Positions 2,332 through 24,575 of a DNA stretch of 47,548 nucleotides are shown here, one piece after another (positions within the stretch are counted from its first letter, which is position 1; each line of letters opens with the position of its first letter). The position numbers and the translations under genes are program-made. Source of the stretch: Parcubacteria group bacterium (GTDB lineage: Bacteria > Patescibacteriota > Minisyncoccia > Phycocordibacterales > 21-14-all-47-15); contig JACOYO010000007.1 in assembly GCA_016181845.1 (NCBI GenBank), positions 1 to 47,548 on the forward strand, in the 5' to 3' direction. The notes under the pieces are model-generated. The model was not told the DNA's origin, did no database searches, and was given only the letters and a program-made list of their open reading frames with translations.

Positions 2332-5070
2332 ATGGAACACATTCCCCAGAAAGTGTTCAAGGCAAGTGTTTTTGCCATAGATGTAATCGCAGAAGGAATT
2401 AAAAAAATCACTTTTAAGATAAACGGGCCGTTTTCTTTTTTGGCTGGACAGTATGTGTGGGTTGAGATTCCGGAATTAAAAGTGAAAGACGCGAGAGGCA
2501 ATCGAAGAGCGTTTTCAATCTGCAATATCAAAAATCAAGAAAACACTGTCTCCATTGTTACGAGAATCAGTACGAGCGGTTTCAAGCAAACATTATTTGC
2601 GCTTGACCCGGGCGATGAAGTGAACATACACGGGCCGTTTGGCAGTGCTTTTGTTCTCCGCAATCACAAAGCAAAAGAAAGAAATATTATCATGGTGGCG
2701 GAGGGCTCCTGCATAACCCCGTTTTTGGCGACTATTGAGAGGATTAAAGCGGATGCTTTGCAGGTCAATATTTTTTTAGCGTATCTCAATACTAAAAAAG
2801 AAACGGCACCTTTCCTGAAAGAACTTGAAGCGTTTAAGAACAGCAATAGTTTTTTTGATTATCTGGTGATATATGAGCCATTTTCTTGGGATTGCGTGAA
2901 AGGAGCGTATGGCAAGCTTGGCCACCATACGGAATGGTGGATTTCCGGTTTGCAGACAACGGTGGATTTTGTGTATGAGATTTTGGAAAAACACGGCGTC
3001 TCTATGCTTGATATGGCGTTTGAGCATTATTATCCGACTCACAAAGATACTCTGACTCTCGGGCAAATAAAAGAACAGCTTGAAAGCGGAGGATTATGCG
3101 CGCAGGTGATTCAAAATGCAAACAACCATACGATTATCACCGATGTGAACGGCGTCATATTGTTTGCCAACAAAGCGGCAGAGCTCGCGACCGGCTATTC
3201 GCAGGAGGAACTTTTGGGGCATACCCCGCGGCTTTGGGGCGGATTGATGAGCCCCGAATTTTATAAAGATTTTTGGTCTCGGAAAAAATCGGAGCGGTTT
3301 TTTGAGACAGAGCTTGTCAATCGGCATAAAAGCGGGAAACTCTACTACGCAACCGTGTATATTACGCAGATTGTAAATGACGCAAAAGAGCTTATCGGAT
3401 ACATCGGCATGGAAAAAGATATTTCCAAGAAAGTTGAAATGGAAGAAAGAATTCTCCTCCAATATGATTTGATATCAAAACTTTCTCTGGGAACATTTGG
3501 TCTGGCGTCGGTTAAAACAATGATTGAAATGATTGCGAAAGGGCTCCATTGGGATTTTTGCTCAATATGGATTCCGTCCTCCGACGGCAACAATGTGCGC
3601 AATATACATACGTGGAGCCGCGCGCCGGAGAAGCATGTCTCTTTTGAAAAATGCACTAAAAATGAAGTATTAAAAAAAGGAATCGGGTTGCCCGGCAGAG
3701 TATACGCGAATTGCACATCAGAGTGGATACTTGATGTGGTGTCTGATAAAAATTTTCCGAGAGCAAAATGCGCCAAAGAGGCCGGGCTACGCACCGGATT
3801 TGCTTTCCCCGTGTATGAAGGCGAACGCGTATACGCGATTTTTGAATTTTTTTCCGAAGAGATGTCGCCCGAGGATGAATATTTGCTCAAGACATACTAT
3901 CTCATCGGGCATCAGATCGGTCAGCATTTTCTCAAGGAAGAACAAGATGTGGAATTGAAATCGCTTCTGAAACGTTTTAATTTGGCGACAAAGTCAGCGC
4001 ATATCGGCGTGTGGGAGTGGAACTTTGAAAAAGACAAGTTGTACTGGGATGACAACATGTACCTTTTGTTTGGTATTGATAAAAAAGATATTGGCGAGGA
4101 TGCGCCTCTCTCGGCTCTTAGAAAAAAGGCGATTCATCCGGCAGATTTTGAAAGAGTTGAGAAAGAAGAAGCGCTGGGGGTTGAAGAGAATAAAAATCTT
4201 GATACGACATTTCGGGTGATATGGAAAGACGGCTCACTGCACTACCTGCGCGCGTTTGGGCTCGTGGAAAAAGATAGTTTTGGCAAGCCCGCAAACTTTA
4301 TCGGCGTAAATTGGGATGTGACCAAAGAAAAAGAAGCCGACCGCATAAAGTCTGAATTTATTTCACTCGCCAGCCATCAGCTGCGCACGCCGCTCACCGG
4401 CATTGAGTGGACCGCCGAACTCTTTTCAAAGAAAGAAACATTGACGGAGACTGGGAAAAAGTATCTCCGCGACATATCTTTTTCCGCCAAGCGGCTTTCA
4501 ACTCTCGTGCGGCTACTTTTGGATGTATCGCGCATAGAGGGCGGGAATATCGGTGTTTCTCCGGAGCCGATTGAATTGGTCTCATTTATAAAAGAACATC
4601 TTGAGCATATGCAAGTACTTTGCGCGAAAAAAGGGCTCACCTGTTTTTTTGCAAAAGAGAAACCTGAAAAGTGTCTGATTACCACCGATAAAAATCTTCT
4701 GGGATACATTGTGCAAAATATCATTTCAAACGGCGTTGAATACACGAACGCTGGAGGAAATGTAGTCGTTTCTCTGGAAGCAAAGCCGGATAGAGTATGT
4801 ATCAAGGTGCAAGATACCGGTATCGGGATACCAAAAAAAGAGCTCGGGCGTGTTTTTGAAAAGTTTTTCCGCGCGTCAAATGCGACCGCCGTGAAGCCGG
4901 ACGGCACCGGACTCGGTCTCTACATTGTTTCTGAAGCGGTAAAATTGCTTGGCGGCGCGGTACGAGCTGAATCGGAGGAGGGGAAAGGGTCCATATTTTT
5001 TGTAGAGCTCCCTTGGGCGATAGCGTCTCATGCCGGAGAAAAGAAACTCACACAAGAATTTCCATTGTAG
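2332..5070 (+). CDS. Hybrid sensor: FNR/flavodoxin-reductase-like FAD/NAD domain + PAS + GAF + PAS + HisKA + HATPase
   Basis: RAFSIC and VAEGSCITPFL resemble FNR FAD/NAD motifs; PAS (TIITDVNGVILFANKAAELATGYSQEELLG); H-box FISLASHQLRTPLTGIEW; N/G boxes (IIQNIISN-like, DTGIGIP, GTGLGLYI). Confidence 0.88.
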   Translation: MEHIPQKVFKASVFAIDVIAEGIKKITFKINGPFSFLAGQYVWVEIPELKVKDARGNRRAFSICNIKNQENTVSIVTRISTSGFKQTLFALDPGDEVNIHGPFGSAFVLRNHKAKERNIIMVAEGSCITPFLATIERIKADALQVNIFLAYLNTKKETAPFLKELEAFKNSNSFFDYLVIYEPFSWDCVKGAYGKLGHHTEWWISGLQTTVDFVYEILEKHGVSMLDMAFEHYYPTHKDTLTLGQIKEQLESGGLCAQVIQNANNHTIITDVNGVILFANKAAELATGYSQEELLGHTPRLWGGLMSPEFYKDFWSRKKSERFFETELVNRHKSGKLYYATVYITQIVNDAKELIGYIGMEKDISKKVEMEERILLQYDLISKLSLGTFGLASVKTMIEMIAKGLHWDFCSIWIPSSDGNNVRNIHTWSRAPEKHVSFEKCTKNEVLKKGIGLPGRVYANCTSEWILDVVSDKNFPRAKCAKEAGLRTGFAFPVYEGERVYAIFEFFSEEMSPEDEYLLKTYYLIGHQIGQHFLKEEQDVELKSLLKRFNLATKSAHIGVWEWNFEKDKLYWDDNMYLLFGIDKKDIGEDAPLSALRKKAIHPADFERVEKEEALGVEENKNLDTTFRVIWKDGSLHYLRAFGLVEKDSFGKPANFIGVNWDVTKEKEADRIKSEFISLASHQLRTPLTGIEWTAELFSKKETLTETGKKYLRDISFSAKRLSTLVRLLLDVSRIEGGNIGVSPEPIELVSFIKEHLEHMQVLCAKKGLTCFFAKEKPEKCLITTDKNLLGYIVQNIISNGVEYTNAGGNVVVSLEAKPDRVCIKVQDTGIGIPKKELGRVFEKFFRASNATAVKPDGTGLGLYIVSEAVKLLGGAVRAESEEGKGSIFFVELPWAIASHAGEKKLTQEFPL

Positions 5071-10545: not shown

Positions 10546-10584
10546 AAAAACCCAGTGTGGAGTCGGTCTCCGCATGGGGTTTTT
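10546..10584 (+). terminator. Rho-independent terminator after the cohesin gene
   Basis: AAAAACCCagtgtGGAGtcggtCTCCgcatGGGGTTTTT. Confidence 0.7.
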
Positions 10585-10618
10585 GTTTTCCTCGTCTTTT
10601 TCCCGTATACTATTTTGT

Positions 10619-11002
10619 ATGGAAAAAGATTTTGACAAATGGAATGGAGCAAAGAAAAAAACAAATGCTGAACCAACACGCTTCTATACTGTCCGTGAGA
10701 TATGGTGGTGTCGTCTTGGTGTAAATATCGGTTCTGAACAGGATGGAAATGGCCAAGCATTTCTTCGTCCAGTTGTAATAGTTCGTGCGTTTGGACCAGA
10801 AACATGCGTTGTTATTCCTCTCACGACGTCAGAGCGGAAACATCCACTCCGTATTCCTGTGGGGACGATACAAGAAAAGAACGCGTCAGCACTGCTTTCA
10901 CAGGTGCGTGTGATTGACACCCGCCGTCTTGTTGAAAAGGTAGGATTCCTTGATAATGGAATATTCGTGCAATTAAGAAAAGCCGTCAGAAATTTGTTCT
11001 GA
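10619..11002 (+). CDS. MazF/PemK-like toxin family protein
   Basis: REIWWCRLGVNIGSEQDGNGQAFLRPVVIV..VIPLTTSERK..ALLSQVRVIDTRRL, PemK/MazF motifs; no adjacent antitoxin ORF visible. Confidence 0.8.
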   Translation: MEKDFDKWNGAKKKTNAEPTRFYTVREIWWCRLGVNIGSEQDGNGQAFLRPVVIVRAFGPETCVVIPLTTSERKHPLRIPVGTIQEKNASALLSQVRVIDTRRLVEKVGFLDNGIFVQLRKAVRNLF

Positions 11003-11331: not shown

Positions 11332-11736
11332 TTGAAAAAATACATGAAAAAGGATTTTGATAATTGGCACAAAGAAAAAAGTAATTTACATCAAGAAAAA
11401 ATACGTCCATTTTTCCACGAAAGAGAAATTTGGTTCGCTTCGGTTGGAATAAATATCGGTTTTGAGCAGGATGGCAGGGGGGATCAATTTCTGCGTCCTG
11501 TTATTATCCTTAAAAAATTTAATAATGAAGTATTGTGGGGGATACCACTTACAAAAAATCAAAAGAAAGGGGAATATTATTTTCAGTTTAAGTTTTTAAG
11601 TGAGGAAAAAATGAGTACCGCCATTCTTTCTCAAATTCGTTTGATAGATTCAAAGAGACTGCAGTATAAGATTGGTGACGTGAAAGAAGATAATTTTATT
11701 GAACTAAAAAGAAAAATCATGCAATTGCTTGCATGA
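11332..11736 (+). CDS. Second MazF/PemK-like toxin family protein (TTG 11332 or ATG 11344 start)
   Basis: REIWFASVGINIGFEQDGRGDQFLRPVIIL..WGIPLTKNQKK..AILSQIRLIDSKRL, diverged paralogue of 10619-11002. Confidence 0.8.
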   Translation: MKKYMKKDFDNWHKEKSNLHQEKIRPFFHEREIWFASVGINIGFEQDGRGDQFLRPVIILKKFNNEVLWGIPLTKNQKKGEYYFQFKFLSEEKMSTAILSQIRLIDSKRLQYKIGDVKEDNFIELKRKIMQLLA

Positions 11737-11856: not shown

Positions 11857-12606
11857 ATGGGAATGAAACAGGATACGAAGCAGGAGAAGGGGCGTTTGCA
11901 TCCGCTGACGCATGTTATCCGCCACATGGTGGGTATTTTTCGCGAGCTTGGATTTGCTGTTGCCGAGGGACCGGAAATTGAGACGGAACACTACAATTTT
12001 GACGCGCTGAACATTCCAAAAGACCATCCGGCTCGCGATATGTGGGATACGTTTTGGCTTAAGCCGCGAAACGCAGGCAAGCTTTTGCGCACCCATACCT
12101 CGCCGATGCAGATTCGGTATATGGAAACGCACAAGCCGCCGATTCGGATTATTGTGCCCGGAAAAGTGTTTCGCTATGAAGCGACAGACAGCACTCATGA
12201 AGCGCAATTTTATCAACTTGAAGGGCTTTTGATAGACAAAAACATTTCGCTTGCGCATTTGAAAGGAGTGCTTGGAAAATTTTTTGAAGGGCTTTTCGGC
12301 AAGCATACGGCAGTGCGGCTGCGCCCGAGTTATTTTCCGTTTGTTGAGCCCGGAGTGGAGGTTGATGTGTCGTGTTTTAAGTGCGCGGGGAAAGGGTGCG
12401 GACTTTGCAAGCAAAGCGGATGGATTGAAATCATGGGCGCGGGCATGGTGCATCCAAACGTTTTACGTGGGGTAGGCATAGACGAGCGGGAGTGGCAGGG
12501 ATTTGCTTTTGGCATCGGCATTGACCGCGTGGCGATGTTGAAATACGGTATAGACGACATTCGTCTTTTGTATCAGGGGGATTTGCGTTTGGTAAACCAG
12601 TTTTAG
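11857..12606 (+). CDS. pheS: Phenylalanine--tRNA ligase alpha subunit (short form)
   Basis: Class II motifs [23 protein letters not shown] and [20 protein letters not shown]; 249 aa, lacking the N-terminal coiled-coil region. Confidence 0.93.
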
Positions 12607-12766: not shown

Positions 12767-15178
12767 ATGGTAATTTCATACAATTGGCTACAATCTTTTT
12801 TTGAAGAACCATTGCCCGCGCCTGAAAAGGTGGCGGAGCTTTTAACGACGCATAGTTTTGAAGTGGAATCGTTTGAGAAGAAAGACGGCGATACTATTTT
12901 TGAAATTGATATTTTGCCCAATCGCGCGCACGATTGTCTTTCTCATCGCGGTGTGGCGAAAGAACTCGGCGCTCTTTTGAAATTAAATCTCAAATCTCAA
13001 ATTTCAAATGTATCGTCCAAATCTCAAATTTTAAAAAACAATTTAATAATCAACATTGAAGACGAAAAATTGTGCCGCCGATATATCGGGCGGGTGATTG
13101 AAAATGTAGAGGTCGGTCCTTCGCCGGATTGGCTACGTGATCATCTTCTATCCATCGGACAAAAGTCTATCAACAATGTGGTGGACGCGACAAATTATGT
13201 GATGTTTCACTTGGGACAGCCGATGCATGCCTTTGACGCGGACAAGCTCGTTTCACCCGACATTTTGGTGCGCAAAGCACGCGAGGGAGAGCGCATCACT
13301 ACGCTTGATAAAAAAGAAGTAATGCTTGATAGCGGAACGCTTGTTATTGCCGACAAAGAAAGTCCGCTTGCAATCGCTGGTATTAAAGGCGGCATGAAAG
13401 CAGATGTGAATGAGTCAACAAAAAATATCATTTTAGAATCGGCAAATTTTGAGCCGTCAAATATCAGACTAACAGTACAGAAAACAGGCATCCGCACCGA
13501 TTCTTCCAAGCGGTTTGAGCAGGGGATTGCTCCGGAGCTTGCGCTTGAGGCGATGGAGCTTGCCACCAAAGTTATTCTTGAAATAGCCGGAGGAGAAGAA
13601 ACAGCGGTTGGGGATATCGTGGATGTTTATCCACGCCCGGGCGCTCCATACAAAATCGGCGTGTCGCTTGAAGAAATAAATTCTTTATTAGGATTAATCC
13701 TTCGTGAAAATGATGTGAAAGACATTTTTGACCGTCTCGGCTTTCCATATGAAATACTTGACCCGATTAAAAAAGTGCTTGAAATGGCGCCAACATTTTT
13801 AGGAGTGCCATACCGGCACGGAGCGAGCGTTGTCTATGACGCGCCGCGCGCGTTTGATTGCTCCTCTTTTACCGCGTATCTTTTTGCACAAGCCGGAGTC
13901 GCCATTCCGCGAATGTCAGTCGACCAATACGTATTTGGCAGAGAAGTGCCGCTTGAAGAGATGAAGCCCGGTGATATTGTTTTTTCAAATGGACATCATG
14001 GAAAGCAACACACGGCAAGCATAGAATTTTTATCCGGAACGTTCGTCAAAGAAGGCATTGACCATTGCGGGCTCTATCTGGGCGGCGGAAAAATCATCCA
14101 CGCCTTACGGCACAATGGCGCAGGAGCGGTGTTGATTGAAGCATTGGAGGCAAGCAAAGCATTTGCTGATGTTGTCGGCGCGCGGCGTATGTATGAAGGA
14201 GAAAAGCGTTTCGTAGTGACCGTACCGCATGAGCGGCTTGATATCCGCATCGCGTATGACTTGATTGAAGAAATCGGTAGAATACATGGATATGTAGATA
14301 TCCCTGAAGATTTGCCGAATCGTTCTCAACAAAATGAAATTGAATCGCCCATTTTTTATCAGAACGTTATTCGTGAAATCTTGGCGAACGAAGGATTTTC
14401 GGAAGTGTATACCTACACCTTTGTAGACAAACAAGACGGGCAAAAACAAATTGAACTTGAAAACCCGCTTGCGGCGGACAAAGCATTTTTGCGCCCGACG
14501 CTCGCGACCGAATTTTTTGAAAAATTTGAAACCAATGCGTACTATGCGGATTTTCTCGGCATTGATACTGTGAAGATTTTTGAAATCGGCAGAGTATTTT
14601 CTGCTCAAGACGGAGGAGAAAGAGATGTGCTTGGCATTGGCGTCAAACGTGTCAAAAAAGGAAAGAAGGGAATAGAAGCAGATGAATTGCTTTTGCAAAC
14701 TCTCCGCACCCTTTTCAGTACGCTTGGCCTTGATGCGCCGTCTTTGTCAGTATTAGATAGCATAAAAAAAGATCCGCAAACGATGAGCGCGTTTATAGAA
14801 TTACCGTTTGAAGATATCGTCGCGAAGATTGACAAAGACGCGGTACGGAAATTTTTTGACGAGCAAACAATTTTTTCCCGTTCGCCAGAAGTTTCTTATC
14901 AGCCGCTTTCAAAATATCCATTTGTCATACGCGATATCGCATTTTTTGTGCCCGAGCAGGTTTCGTCTGAAGAAGCTGAGCGTGTTATTCGCGAAACGAC
15001 AGGACCGCTTTTGGCGCGGCTGTATCTTTTTGACACCTTTTTGAAAGACGGCAAAAAATCTTTTGCGTTCCGTCTTGTTTTCCAATCACACGAGAAAACG
15101 CTTTCCGATGACGAAGTGAACGAACAAATGTCGGTTGTATCTCAAGCGGTGGACATGCGCGGATGGGATGTACGATAG
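12767..15178 (+). CDS. pheT: Phenylalanine--tRNA ligase beta subunit with inserted NlpC/P60-like domain
   Basis: B3/B4 and B5 regions, C-terminal FDX-ACB (SKYPFVIRDIAFFV..GWDVR); insertion at about 13758-14208 with FDCSSFTAYLFAQAGVAIPR..KPGDIVFSNG..DHCGLYLGGGKIIHA. Confidence 0.93.
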   Translation: MVISYNWLQSFFEEPLPAPEKVAELLTTHSFEVESFEKKDGDTIFEIDILPNRAHDCLSHRGVAKELGALLKLNLKSQISNVSSKSQILKNNLIINIEDEKLCRRYIGRVIENVEVGPSPDWLRDHLLSIGQKSINNVVDATNYVMFHLGQPMHAFDADKLVSPDILVRKAREGERITTLDKKEVMLDSGTLVIADKESPLAIAGIKGGMKADVNESTKNIILESANFEPSNIRLTVQKTGIRTDSSKRFEQGIAPELALEAMELATKVILEIAGGEETAVGDIVDVYPRPGAPYKIGVSLEEINSLLGLILRENDVKDIFDRLGFPYEILDPIKKVLEMAPTFLGVPYRHGASVVYDAPRAFDCSSFTAYLFAQAGVAIPRMSVDQYVFGREVPLEEMKPGDIVFSNGHHGKQHTASIEFLSGTFVKEGIDHCGLYLGGGKIIHALRHNGAGAVLIEALEASKAFADVVGARRMYEGEKRFVVTVPHERLDIRIAYDLIEEIGRIHGYVDIPEDLPNRSQQNEIESPIFYQNVIREILANEGFSEVYTYTFVDKQDGQKQIELENPLAADKAFLRPTLATEFFEKFETNAYYADFLGIDTVKIFEIGRVFSAQDGGERDVLGIGVKRVKKGKKGIEADELLLQTLRTLFSTLGLDAPSLSVLDSIKKDPQTMSAFIELPFEDIVAKIDKDAVRKFFDEQTIFSRSPEVSYQPLSKYPFVIRDIAFFVPEQVSSEEAERVIRETTGPLLARLYLFDTFLKDGKKSFAFRLVFQSHEKTLSDDEVNEQMSVVSQAVDMRGWDVR

Positions 15179-23207: not shown

Positions 23208-24575
23208 ATGATAAAAACAATCCATTGTATTGGCATCGGAGGAATTGGCGTGTCAGCGCTTGCGCGGTTTTTCTTGTCGCGCGGAGCGCGGGTGAGCGGT
23301 TCGGATGGCAGAGATGGCGCGTGGCGGAAACCGCTTGAAGATGAGGGAGCGCGTATTTTTATCGGGCATGATTCAAAAAATATTCCCGCTGATTGCGATT
23401 TGGTTATTTATTCGTCGGCGGTGCCTGAAGACAATCCTGAACGAAGAGAAGTGTCGCGCCGCGGCATTGCGCAAAAGACATACGCGGAAGGATTAGGCGA
23501 AGCAATGAAAGAATATCCAGTGCGGATTGCCGTATCTGGGACACATGGGAAAACGACCACGACGGCACTTATCGGGCTTATATTTGAAGAAGCAAAAAAA
23601 GACCCTATGGTAATTGTCGGCGGGAAAGTCCCTTCGTGGGGGAGCAATTTTAGAAACGGGCAGGGGGATATCGCGGTTGCAGAAGCGTGTGAATATGAGC
23701 GCGCGTTTGACGCGCTTTCTCCAACGGTTGCGATTGTAAATAATATTGAAGCCGACCACCTTGATTACTATCGTGATATTTCGGATATTGAAAACGCATT
23801 TGGAGATTTTGTCTCAAGATTGCCCAAAAACGGGTTGCTTATCTATAACGCTGACGATGAGCGGGCGCGAAAAATCGCCCTTCGGTCGCCATGCAAAAAA
23901 ATTTCTTTCAGCGTTGATGGCGACGCGGGTATTATTGCGAGAAATAGGACGATAGAAAATGGCGGGCAGAGTTTTGAGGTGTGGAAAGAGGGCGTATTGC
24001 TTGGACGTGTGACGCTCCATGTTCCCGGGACTTTCAATATCTCAAACGCGCTCGCGGCGCTTTCGTGCGCGCTTGCATACGGCGTGTCGTTTTCGGAAGC
24101 AAAAAAAACGCTTGAAGCTTTTCTCGGCAGTTGGCGGCGATTTGAAAAAGTGGGCGAGATTGATGGCAAGCCGATTATTTCCGATTATGCGCATCACCCG
24201 ACGGCGGTGCGCGAGACGATTGCCGCGGCAAAAGAATTCTTCCCAGGTAAAAAAATACTCGCGGTGTTTCAGCCGCACCAGCGCGACCGGACGCTCAAAC
24301 TTTTTGATGAGTTTACTTCCGCTTTTGACGGCGCGGAAGGCGTTATTCTTTCTGAAATTTATGATGTTGCCGGAAGGAATGAAACCGAAAAAGAAATAAG
24401 TTCAAAAGAGCTTGCGGGAGCTCTCCAAAAAAGAAATCCGAAGCAGGATATTGTATATGCCCGCGATTTAGCAGAAACAAAAAAAATGATACAAGAAAAA
24501 ATCGGCGATTTTGACGCGCTCGTCATTATGGGCGCGGGGGATATTGATACCATAGCGCGAGATGTGATACGTTGA
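23208..24575 (+). CDS. murC: UDP-N-acetylmuramate--L-alanine ligase
   Basis: IHCIGIGGIGVSALA, VSGTHGKTTTTALI, DYAHHPTAV. Confidence 0.96.
   Translation: MIKTIHCIGIGGIGVSALARFFLSRGARVSGSDGRDGAWRKPLEDEGARIFIGHDSKNIPADCDLVIYSSAVPEDNPERREVSRRGIAQKTYAEGLGEAMKEYPVRIAVSGTHGKTTTTALIGLIFEEAKKDPMVIVGGKVPSWGSNFRNGQGDIAVAEACEYERAFDALSPTVAIVNNIEADHLDYYRDISDIENAFGDFVSRLPKNGLLIYNADDERARKIALRSPCKKISFSVDGDAGIIARNRTIENGGQSFEVWKEGVLLGRVTLHVPGTFNISNALAALSCALAYGVSFSEAKKTLEAFLGSWRRFEKVGEIDGKPIISDYAHHPTAVRETIAAAKEFFPGKKILAVFQPHQRDRTLKLFDEFTSAFDGAEGVILSEIYDVAGRNETEKEISSKELAGALQKRNPKQDIVYARDLAETKKMIQEKIGDFDALVIMGAGDIDTIARDVIR

What the first reader, a model, noticed from the sequence alone, without database searches (positions are those of the whole stretch)
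13758..14208. NlpC/P60-like peptidase domain inserted inside the PheRS beta-subunit B5 domain
The pheT frame is continuous, but about 150 residues interrupt B5 between GVSLEEINSLLGLILRENDVKDIFDRLGFPYE and VVTVPHERLDIRIAYDLIEEIGRIHGYVDIP, which normally adjoin via a short hairpin. The insert carries FDCSSFTAYLFAQAGVAIPR (Cys motif), KPGDIVFSNG and DHCGLYLGGGKIIHA (His motif), the recognisable NlpC/P60 catalytic signature, apparently intact. The same protein lacks the N-terminal OB-fold tRNA-binding (EMAP-like) domain found in most bacterial PheT. A possible peptidase, amidase or acyltransferase domain inside an essential synthetase suggests recruitment as a substitute tRNA-binding or structural module, an editing-related hydrolase, or a moonlighting wall enzyme.
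Basis: partly seen in the sequence, partly recalled or inferred. Interest (0 to 1): 0.92.

Follow-up and report, generated by a model that had tools for sequence, protein, structure and literature searches.

The report
Cysteine hydrolase embedded in Phe-tRNA synthetase
Many ultra-small Patescibacteria carry a whole cysteine-hydrolase domain, of the kind that normally cuts cell walls, inside the enzyme that loads phenylalanine onto tRNA; its catalytic residues have stayed intact, and in some lineages the domain became a separate gene beside a replacement enzyme, which points to an unknown task linked to phenylalanine loading.

Summary
Window pheT (12767-15178, 803 aa) has a full NlpC/P60 domain (residues ~331-477) replacing the ~5-residue B5 hairpin. 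It is no artefact. In an order-level sample, 57 of 298 genomes carry it at that site. A second patescibacterial lineage carries it at the same site in longer PheT (EMAP/B2 present where checked). Catalytic Cys and first His are invariant in 61/61 embedded copies, and the third catalytic residue is His, Asp or Glu. An AlphaFold model matches NlpC/P60 crystal structures (TM 0.90, 2.2 A).

Seven genomes have lost PheT and use a single-chain mitochondrial-type PheRS. There the domain survives as a ~220-aa free protein that keeps both B5 halves, beside the new PheRS gene (four 4-nt overlaps, one 3-nt gap, two divergent). In a tree the free copies nest inside the embedded ones, so the domain escaped more than once. 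It appears to be an active, cytosolic enzyme functionally tied to PheRS.

Wall-enzyme moonlighting is disfavoured but not excluded. The best guess is an accessory hydrolase acting on aminoacyl-tRNA(Phe), a proofreading-like role. This is inference; no substrate is shown. No description was found in the papers searched.

The parts
12767..15178 (+). pheT, PheRS beta subunit, 803 aa, without EMAP/B2
   Evidence: TIGR00472 460.9 bits (cut-off 402.65); Pfam domains
13073..13591 (+). B3/4 editing domain (residues 103-275); editing-site residues His154, Glu224, Thr244 kept, Ala356 equivalent is Ser246
   Evidence: PF03483 E 3e-65; alignment to T. thermophilus
13640..13756 (+). B5 domain, first half (residues 292-330)
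   Evidence: alignment with insert-less PheT; AlphaFold strand 296-300, helices 301-308 and 314-324
13757..14197 (+). NlpC/P60 domain inserted in the B5 hairpin (residues 331-477)
   Evidence: PF00877 E 1e-20; A2 profile match 13748-14197; Foldseek 7cfl TMt 0.90
13859..13861 (+). catalytic Cys365 (FDCSS)
   Evidence: 61/61 embedded copies, 10/10 free copies
14063..14065 (+). catalytic His433 (DHCG)
   Evidence: 61/61 embedded copies
14099..14101 (+). third catalytic residue His445 (IIHA)
   Evidence: His 56/61, Asp 3, Glu 2
14198..14302 (+). B5 domain, second half (residues 478-512)
   Evidence: PF03484 best stretch 477-509; AlphaFold strand 481-485, helix 496-507
14909..15154 (+). FDX-ACB anticodon-binding domain (B8)
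   Evidence: PF03147 E 2e-19
11857..12606 (+). pheS, PheRS alpha catalytic subunit, 249 aa as called; matches the model only from position 63
   Evidence: TIGR00468 318 bits over 63-322 of 324

Best explanation
An NlpC/P60 cysteine hydrolase was inserted, early in patescibacterial evolution, into the B5 hairpin of PheRS beta. It has been kept as a working catalytic domain that serves Phe-tRNA synthesis. Shown: fold, site, distribution, invariant Cys-His dyad, repeated loss, and repeated escape as a free B5-NlpC-B5 protein that stays next to a replacement single-chain PheRS in seven genomes. Inferred, most likely: it works like a cis- or trans-acting proofreading hydrolase. Cys365, activated by His433 and His445, would attack the aminoacyl ester of a wrongly acylated or modified tRNA(Phe), and the B5 shell would hold the domain near PheRS. 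A possible substrate class is D-aminoacyl- or otherwise non-canonical aminoacyl-tRNA that B3/4 does not clear. The parent fold recognises a D-residue, and no sampled member of the order has the usual deacylase DTD.
For: Catalytic Cys and His 61/61 and third residue His/Asp/Glu 61/61; only four insert positions are invariant across the 61 copies and two of them are the catalytic dyad. The insert evolves at a rate like the rest of PheT: mean pairwise identity 0.45, against 0.49 for B3/4 and 0.38 for B6-B8. Confident model (pLDDT about 90-97 over most of the insert) with NlpC/P60 fold. In seven genomes, 94-100% complete, with no B3/4 anywhere and only a single-chain PheRS, the free domain lies next to that gene. 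The free forms keep both B5 halves (hhalign 97.2% and 96.8%, control domains under 10%). In the NlpC tree free forms sit inside the embedded clade in several places. G141 shows a separate NlpC gene overlapping a PheS-like ligase gene by 4 nt. Free forms are enriched where B3/4 is missing: 8/80 against 2/218, Fisher p 0.0006, not corrected for relatedness. A domain in the synthetase with a free-standing homologue is the usual pattern for editing enzymes (ThrRS-ed, AlaX; PMC10018355). DTD in 0/298 genomes.
Against: No activity or substrate data. The B3/4 site is largely intact in insert-bearing PheT, so the insert does not simply replace it. Several single-chain PheRS genomes have no such gene beside the synthetase (G009, G013, G015, G031), and most of the order lacks the insert, so it is dispensable. 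DTD is missing in insert-less genomes too. Most of the gamma-D-Glu S1 residues of wall peptidases (Tyr, Asp, Ser, small residue) are kept (PMC2954226), which fits a muropeptide-like substrate. Known editing domains do not use a covalent cysteine (own knowledge).
Confidence: 0.38

Rival explanations
1. The domain is a cytosolic muropeptide or peptide hydrolase (gamma-D-glutamyl peptidase or dipeptidase) tethered to PheRS, releasing or recycling amino acids or sensing wall precursors near translation.
For: S1-site equivalents of YkfC Tyr226, Asp237, Ser239 and Ser257 largely kept (PMC2954226); the organism has a Mur ligase gene (window 23208-24575), so such peptides can exist in the cytosol.
Against: The Trp228 equivalent is aromatic in about half of the order's copies but in 35/36 reference NlpC domains; the Gly after DCS is mostly lost; Asp237 is Ser or Asn in 10/61 and Arg255 is not Arg in 16/61. 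It does not explain why the domain stays beside a replacement PheRS. A cytosolic DL-endopeptidase would threaten wall precursors (inference).
Confidence: 0.2
2. The domain is a tRNA-dependent acyl- or aminoacyl-transferase: Phe passes from Phe-tRNA or Phe-AMP through a Cys thioester to an amine, making a peptide, lipid or protein tag.
For: Papain-like Cys-His domains include acyltransferases (LRAT branch, own knowledge); coupling to a PheRS gene; G141 couples another NlpC gene to a PheS-like ligase related to NCBI's 'mystery ligase' SrmL.
Against: No acceptor gene is conserved beside the free forms in the loci inspected; the family is the canonical, not the permuted LRAT order.
Confidence: 0.12
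3. The domain regulates PheRS or a translation partner by limited proteolysis, deamidation or self-cleavage.
For: Catalytic residues strictly kept; embedded between two halves of a structural domain.
Against: Free forms persist without PheT, so PheT is not a necessary substrate; no conserved cleavage site was looked for.
Confidence: 0.12
4. The insert is a non-catalytic structural or tRNA-binding module, for example replacing B2.
For: The window PheT lacks B2 and the window PheS matches the alpha-subunit model only from position 63.
Against: Insert-less relatives also lack B2; another lineage has both B2 and the insert; dyad invariant 61/61; insert mostly acidic, pI median 5.9.
Confidence: 0.07
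5. Assembly or annotation artefact.
For: None found.
Confidence: 0.01

Closest known systems
NlpC/P60 (MEROPS C40, PF00877) peptidoglycan endopeptidases such as C. difficile Acd24020 (7cfl), T. thermophilus 4xcm, B. cereus YkfC
   Same: Fold (TMt 0.90, 2.2 A), Cys-His-His order, much of the S1 subsite
   Different: Inside a cytosolic tRNA synthetase; FDCSS instead of DCSG; Asp/Arg network broken in subsets; no SH3b or wall-binding partner; no YkfC-type Asp256
Bacterial PheRS beta subunit (PheT, TIGR00472)
   Same: B1, B3/4, B5, catalytic-like module and FDX-ACB in order; editing-site residues mostly kept
   Different: About 150-residue catalytic domain in the B5 hairpin; no EMAP/B2 in this order
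Editing domains of synthetases and their free-standing homologues (B3/4, CtdA, AlaX, ThrRS-ed, INS family, DTD)
   Same: Enzyme-like domain tied to a synthetase, with free-standing versions beside synthetase genes
   Different: Unrelated fold with a Cys-His nucleophile; substrate untested
Single-chain mitochondrial-type PheRS and NCBI 'PheS-related mystery ligase' SrmL (NF051887)
   Same: The ~380-aa synthetase beside the free B5-NlpC-B5 gene has the tRNA-synt_2d + FDX-ACB layout and scores below both family cut-offs
   Different: Those families are not described with an NlpC partner in anything found here
Lineage-specific insertion domains in essential enzymes (for example in RNA polymerase beta)
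   Same: Large insertion tolerated in a conserved core protein
   Different: This one keeps a catalytic site and can leave its host as a separate gene

Membership tests
NlpC/P60 (PF00877, C40) | Profile match above curated cut-off | tested here: met
   67.8-74 bits against 23
NlpC/P60 (PF00877, C40) | Papain-like NlpC/P60 fold | tested here: met
   Foldseek 7cfl TMt 0.90, rmsd 2.2 A
NlpC/P60 (PF00877, C40) | Cys-His-polar catalytic residues | tested here: met
   C365 and H433 61/61; H445 His 56, Asp 3, Glu 2
NlpC/P60 (PF00877, C40) | Hydrolysis of peptidoglycan stem peptide | not testable with these tools
   needs an assay
YkfC/DPP VI subfamily of NlpC/P60 | Acidic residue at YkfC Asp256 plus SH3b tyrosine | tested here: not met
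   position 383 is Met/Ile/Val/Leu/Thr/Arg/Cys, never acidic; no SH3b domain
Circularly permuted LRAT/YaeF branch | Catalytic Cys after the His | tested here: not met
   Cys365 precedes His433
Bacterial PheRS beta (TIGR00472) | Equivalog score and B3/4, B5, FDX-ACB domains | tested here: met
   460.9 bits against 402.65; Pfam
Bacterial PheRS beta (TIGR00472) | N-terminal EMAP/B2 tRNA-binding domain | tested here: not met
   absent in window and in insert-less relatives; known to be missing in many CPR (PMC5370408)
Aminoacyl-tRNA editing enzyme (functional class) | Deacylates mis-aminoacylated tRNA | not testable with these tools
   needs an assay
Aminoacyl-tRNA editing enzyme (functional class) | Genetic tie to a synthetase with free-standing homologues | tested here: met
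Aminoacyl-tRNA editing enzyme (functional class) | Homology to a known editing fold | tested here: not met
   only NlpC/P60 is matched by the insert

The most novel reading that the evidence does not exclude
A new class of translation quality-control (or tRNA-dependent acyl-transfer) enzyme: a cell-wall-hydrolase fold recruited into PheRS, using a covalent Cys-His mechanism on aminoacyl-tRNA(Phe), able to act embedded or as a free partner of a single-chain PheRS.
Probability: 0.35. Interest if true: 0.93.

Novelty: new variant of a known kind. Interest (0 to 1): 0.8.

Why it matters
Catalytic domains gained by synthetases have repeatedly revealed new proofreading or signalling chemistry. Here an enzyme of an unrelated, well-understood fold has been kept catalytically intact inside an essential synthetase over deep evolutionary time. 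It has also been cut free more than once while, in seven genomes, staying beside the new synthetase gene. That gives natural controls: embedded, free, and absent versions, in genomes with and without the editing domain. The question is directly testable with small recombinant proteins, and it bears on how Patescibacteria that lack DTD, and in part B3/4, keep tRNA(Phe) charging accurate.

Tried and rejected
(1) Insert as substitute for EMAP/B2: rejected, since presence of B2 and of the insert are independent. (2) Insert as substitute for a decayed B3/4 site: not supported, since editing residues are kept about equally with and without insert. (3) Mis-assembly: rejected by recurrence. (4) Trade-off with DTD: uninformative, since DTD is absent from all 298 genomes. 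(5) Homology of the 'EYRAVGNR' NlpC family's flanks to B5: first half supported (hhalign 92.6%; best control CLM1 56%), second half not supported by profile (0.7%). The AlphaFold model has a similar strand-helix order, but Foldseek returned only NlpC hits among the top 50, so it is left open. (6) Papers: seven searches found no account of NlpC/P60 in a synthetase. (7) Fusions outside Patescibacteria were not looked for systematically. In the named-genome scan the hits beyond the Patescibacteria looked like ordinary NlpC matches at 29-41% identity, and I did not check each for PheT.

Full report
WHAT IS THERE. The window carries pheS (11857-12606) and pheT (12767-15178). PheT is one open frame of 803 aa. 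Pfam finds B3/4, then NLPC_P60 (residues 346-450, E 9e-19), then only the second half of B5, then FDX-ACB. The NCBI equivalog model still names it PheRS beta (460.9 bits, cut-off 402.65). Against PDB sequences the two outer parts align with PheRS beta and the insert with NlpC/P60 chains. Nineteen insert-less relatives have 5-16 residues where the window has about 150, so the insert sits exactly in the B5 hairpin, at about 13757-14197. AlphaFold with 30 homologues gives mean pLDDT 87, and about 90-97 over most of the insert. Foldseek finds PheRS beta chains (E down to 2e-49) and, for the insert, C. difficile autolysin 7cfl at TMt 0.90 and 2.2 A.

HOW WIDESPREAD. In 148 relatives the window PheT matched continuously across the insert in about thirty genomes of many families, while most others gave two halves around a gap. 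In 298 genomes of the same order, 57 have the insert in PheT and 10 have it as a free ~200-250 aa protein (my sorting by frame length and score). Named relatives include Campbellbacteria, Taylorbacteria, Zambryskibacteria, Nomurabacteria and Parcubacteria C7867-005, so this is a Paceibacteria/Parcubacteria group. In a phylum-wide sample eight genomes outside the class have NlpC at the same B5 site in 920-965 aa PheT; the one scanned against Pfam (L120) retains EMAP/B2. In the class of G170, 6 of 16 genomes have it. On a tree of the PheT core with the insert removed, at least seven changes of the label are needed within the order, four forced by well-supported branches. One ancient gain with repeated loss is the simplest reading, but independent insertions in the two lineages are not excluded.

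CATALYTIC STATE. Across 61 embedded copies Cys365 and His433 are invariant, and the third residue His445 is His in 56, Asp in 3 and Glu in 2. Only four insert positions are invariant and the dyad supplies two of them. The insert diverges at a pace like the rest of PheT. Residues that bind gamma-D-Glu in YkfC (PMC2954226) are largely present: Tyr349 59/61, Asp364 51/61, Ser366 58/61, and a small residue at 384. However, the aromatic YkfC Trp228 position is variable, the usual Gly after DCS is replaced, and the Asp/Arg network is broken in subsets. The domain thus looks like an active enzyme whose substrate site has drifted from, but not lost, the wall-peptidase pattern.

THE DOMAIN CAN LEAVE PHET. 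G051, G538, G098, G619, G572, G593 and G530 (94-100% complete) have no B3/4 domain anywhere. Their only strong PheS-type gene is a single-chain ~380-aa synthetase with FDX-ACB (the FDX-ACB was scanned in three of the seven). Each keeps a free protein of NlpC flanked by both halves of B5, next to that synthetase gene: four share a 4-nt overlap, one has a 3-nt gap, and two are divergent at 37-39 nt. Profile comparison ties its flanks to B5 (97.2% and 96.8%, control domains under 10%). G103 has PheS, a 408-aa PheT without B3/4, and an unlinked free copy. G138 and G549 have an insert-less PheT and an unlinked free copy. In a tree of the NlpC domains the free copies nest within the embedded ones in several places, so excision happened more than once. 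The tree is a quick one with few columns, so branch order is approximate. G141 has a separate bare NlpC gene overlapping a PheS-like ligase gene by 4 nt, in addition to ordinary PheS and PheT.

WHAT THIS MEANS. The domain is not there for the structure of PheT, because it outlives PheT. It is not a stand-in for B2, because B2 and the insert vary independently. It is not a simple replacement of B3/4, whose site is mostly intact. It is dispensable, since most of the order and several single-chain PheRS genomes do without it. An accessory enzyme that serves Phe-tRNA synthesis fits best. Proofreading is my first choice: domains shared between synthetases and free-standing partners are the usual pattern of editing enzymes (PMC10018355), free copies are enriched where B3/4 is gone (8/80 against 2/218, uncorrected for relatedness), and DTD is absent from all 298 genomes. 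That last point is only suggestive, as insert-less genomes lack DTD too. The cysteine mechanism on an aminoacyl ester is inference. A cytosolic muropeptide or peptide hydrolase, an acyltransferase and a regulatory protease remain possible.

NOVELTY. Each part is a known family. I found no report of an NlpC/P60 domain in any aminoacyl-tRNA synthetase in the open papers searched; subscription papers and preprints were not covered. Missing B2 in CPR PheRS-beta is already known (PMC5370408). I rate it a new variant of a known kind, with a realistic chance of a new enzymatic activity.

LIMITS. All evidence is from sequence and predicted structure. Trees used a fast method with SH-aLRT support only. 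Genome samples were even draws, not complete surveys. Coordinates of the model were not available for measuring distances.

Noticed in passing
own genome G000 contig C11:38596-38988 (L112 1312-1974): A second NlpC/P60 protein (220 aa, 'EYRAVGNRCAV') with Cys and His intact and no obvious signal peptide. Its family occurs in several patescibacterial classes and its N-terminal flank resembles the first half of B5 (hhalign 92.6%); the C-terminal flank is unresolved.
   Followed up: partly
L177 (G141:C4) 590-1030 and 593 downwards: Bare NlpC gene overlapping by 4 nt a PheS-like/SrmL-like ligase gene cut by the contig end, in a genome that also has ordinary PheS and PheT.
   Followed up: partly
order sample: 80 of 298 genomes of the order lack any B3/4 domain; those examined mostly use a single-chain mitochondrial-type PheRS of about 380 aa, which in the full-length copies scanned scores below both the pheS_mito and SrmL cut-offs.
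   Followed up: partly
L239 (G103) 3493-4716: PheT of only 408 aa without B3/4, beside a normal PheS.
   Followed up: no
order sample: D-aminoacyl-tRNA deacylase (PF02580) absent from all 298 genomes.
   Followed up: no
window 10574-11002 and 11332-11736: Two PemK/MazF-like genes in tandem just upstream of pheS (PF02452), with similar sequences.
   Followed up: no
window 2332-5070: Large sensor kinase with PAS, GAF and an N-terminal FAD-binding-like segment, notable for a 0.74-Mb genome.
   Followed up: no
L174 and L175 (G563, G591): Embedded inserts with the third catalytic His replaced by Glu and a diverged second half, while Cys and first His remain.
   Followed up: no
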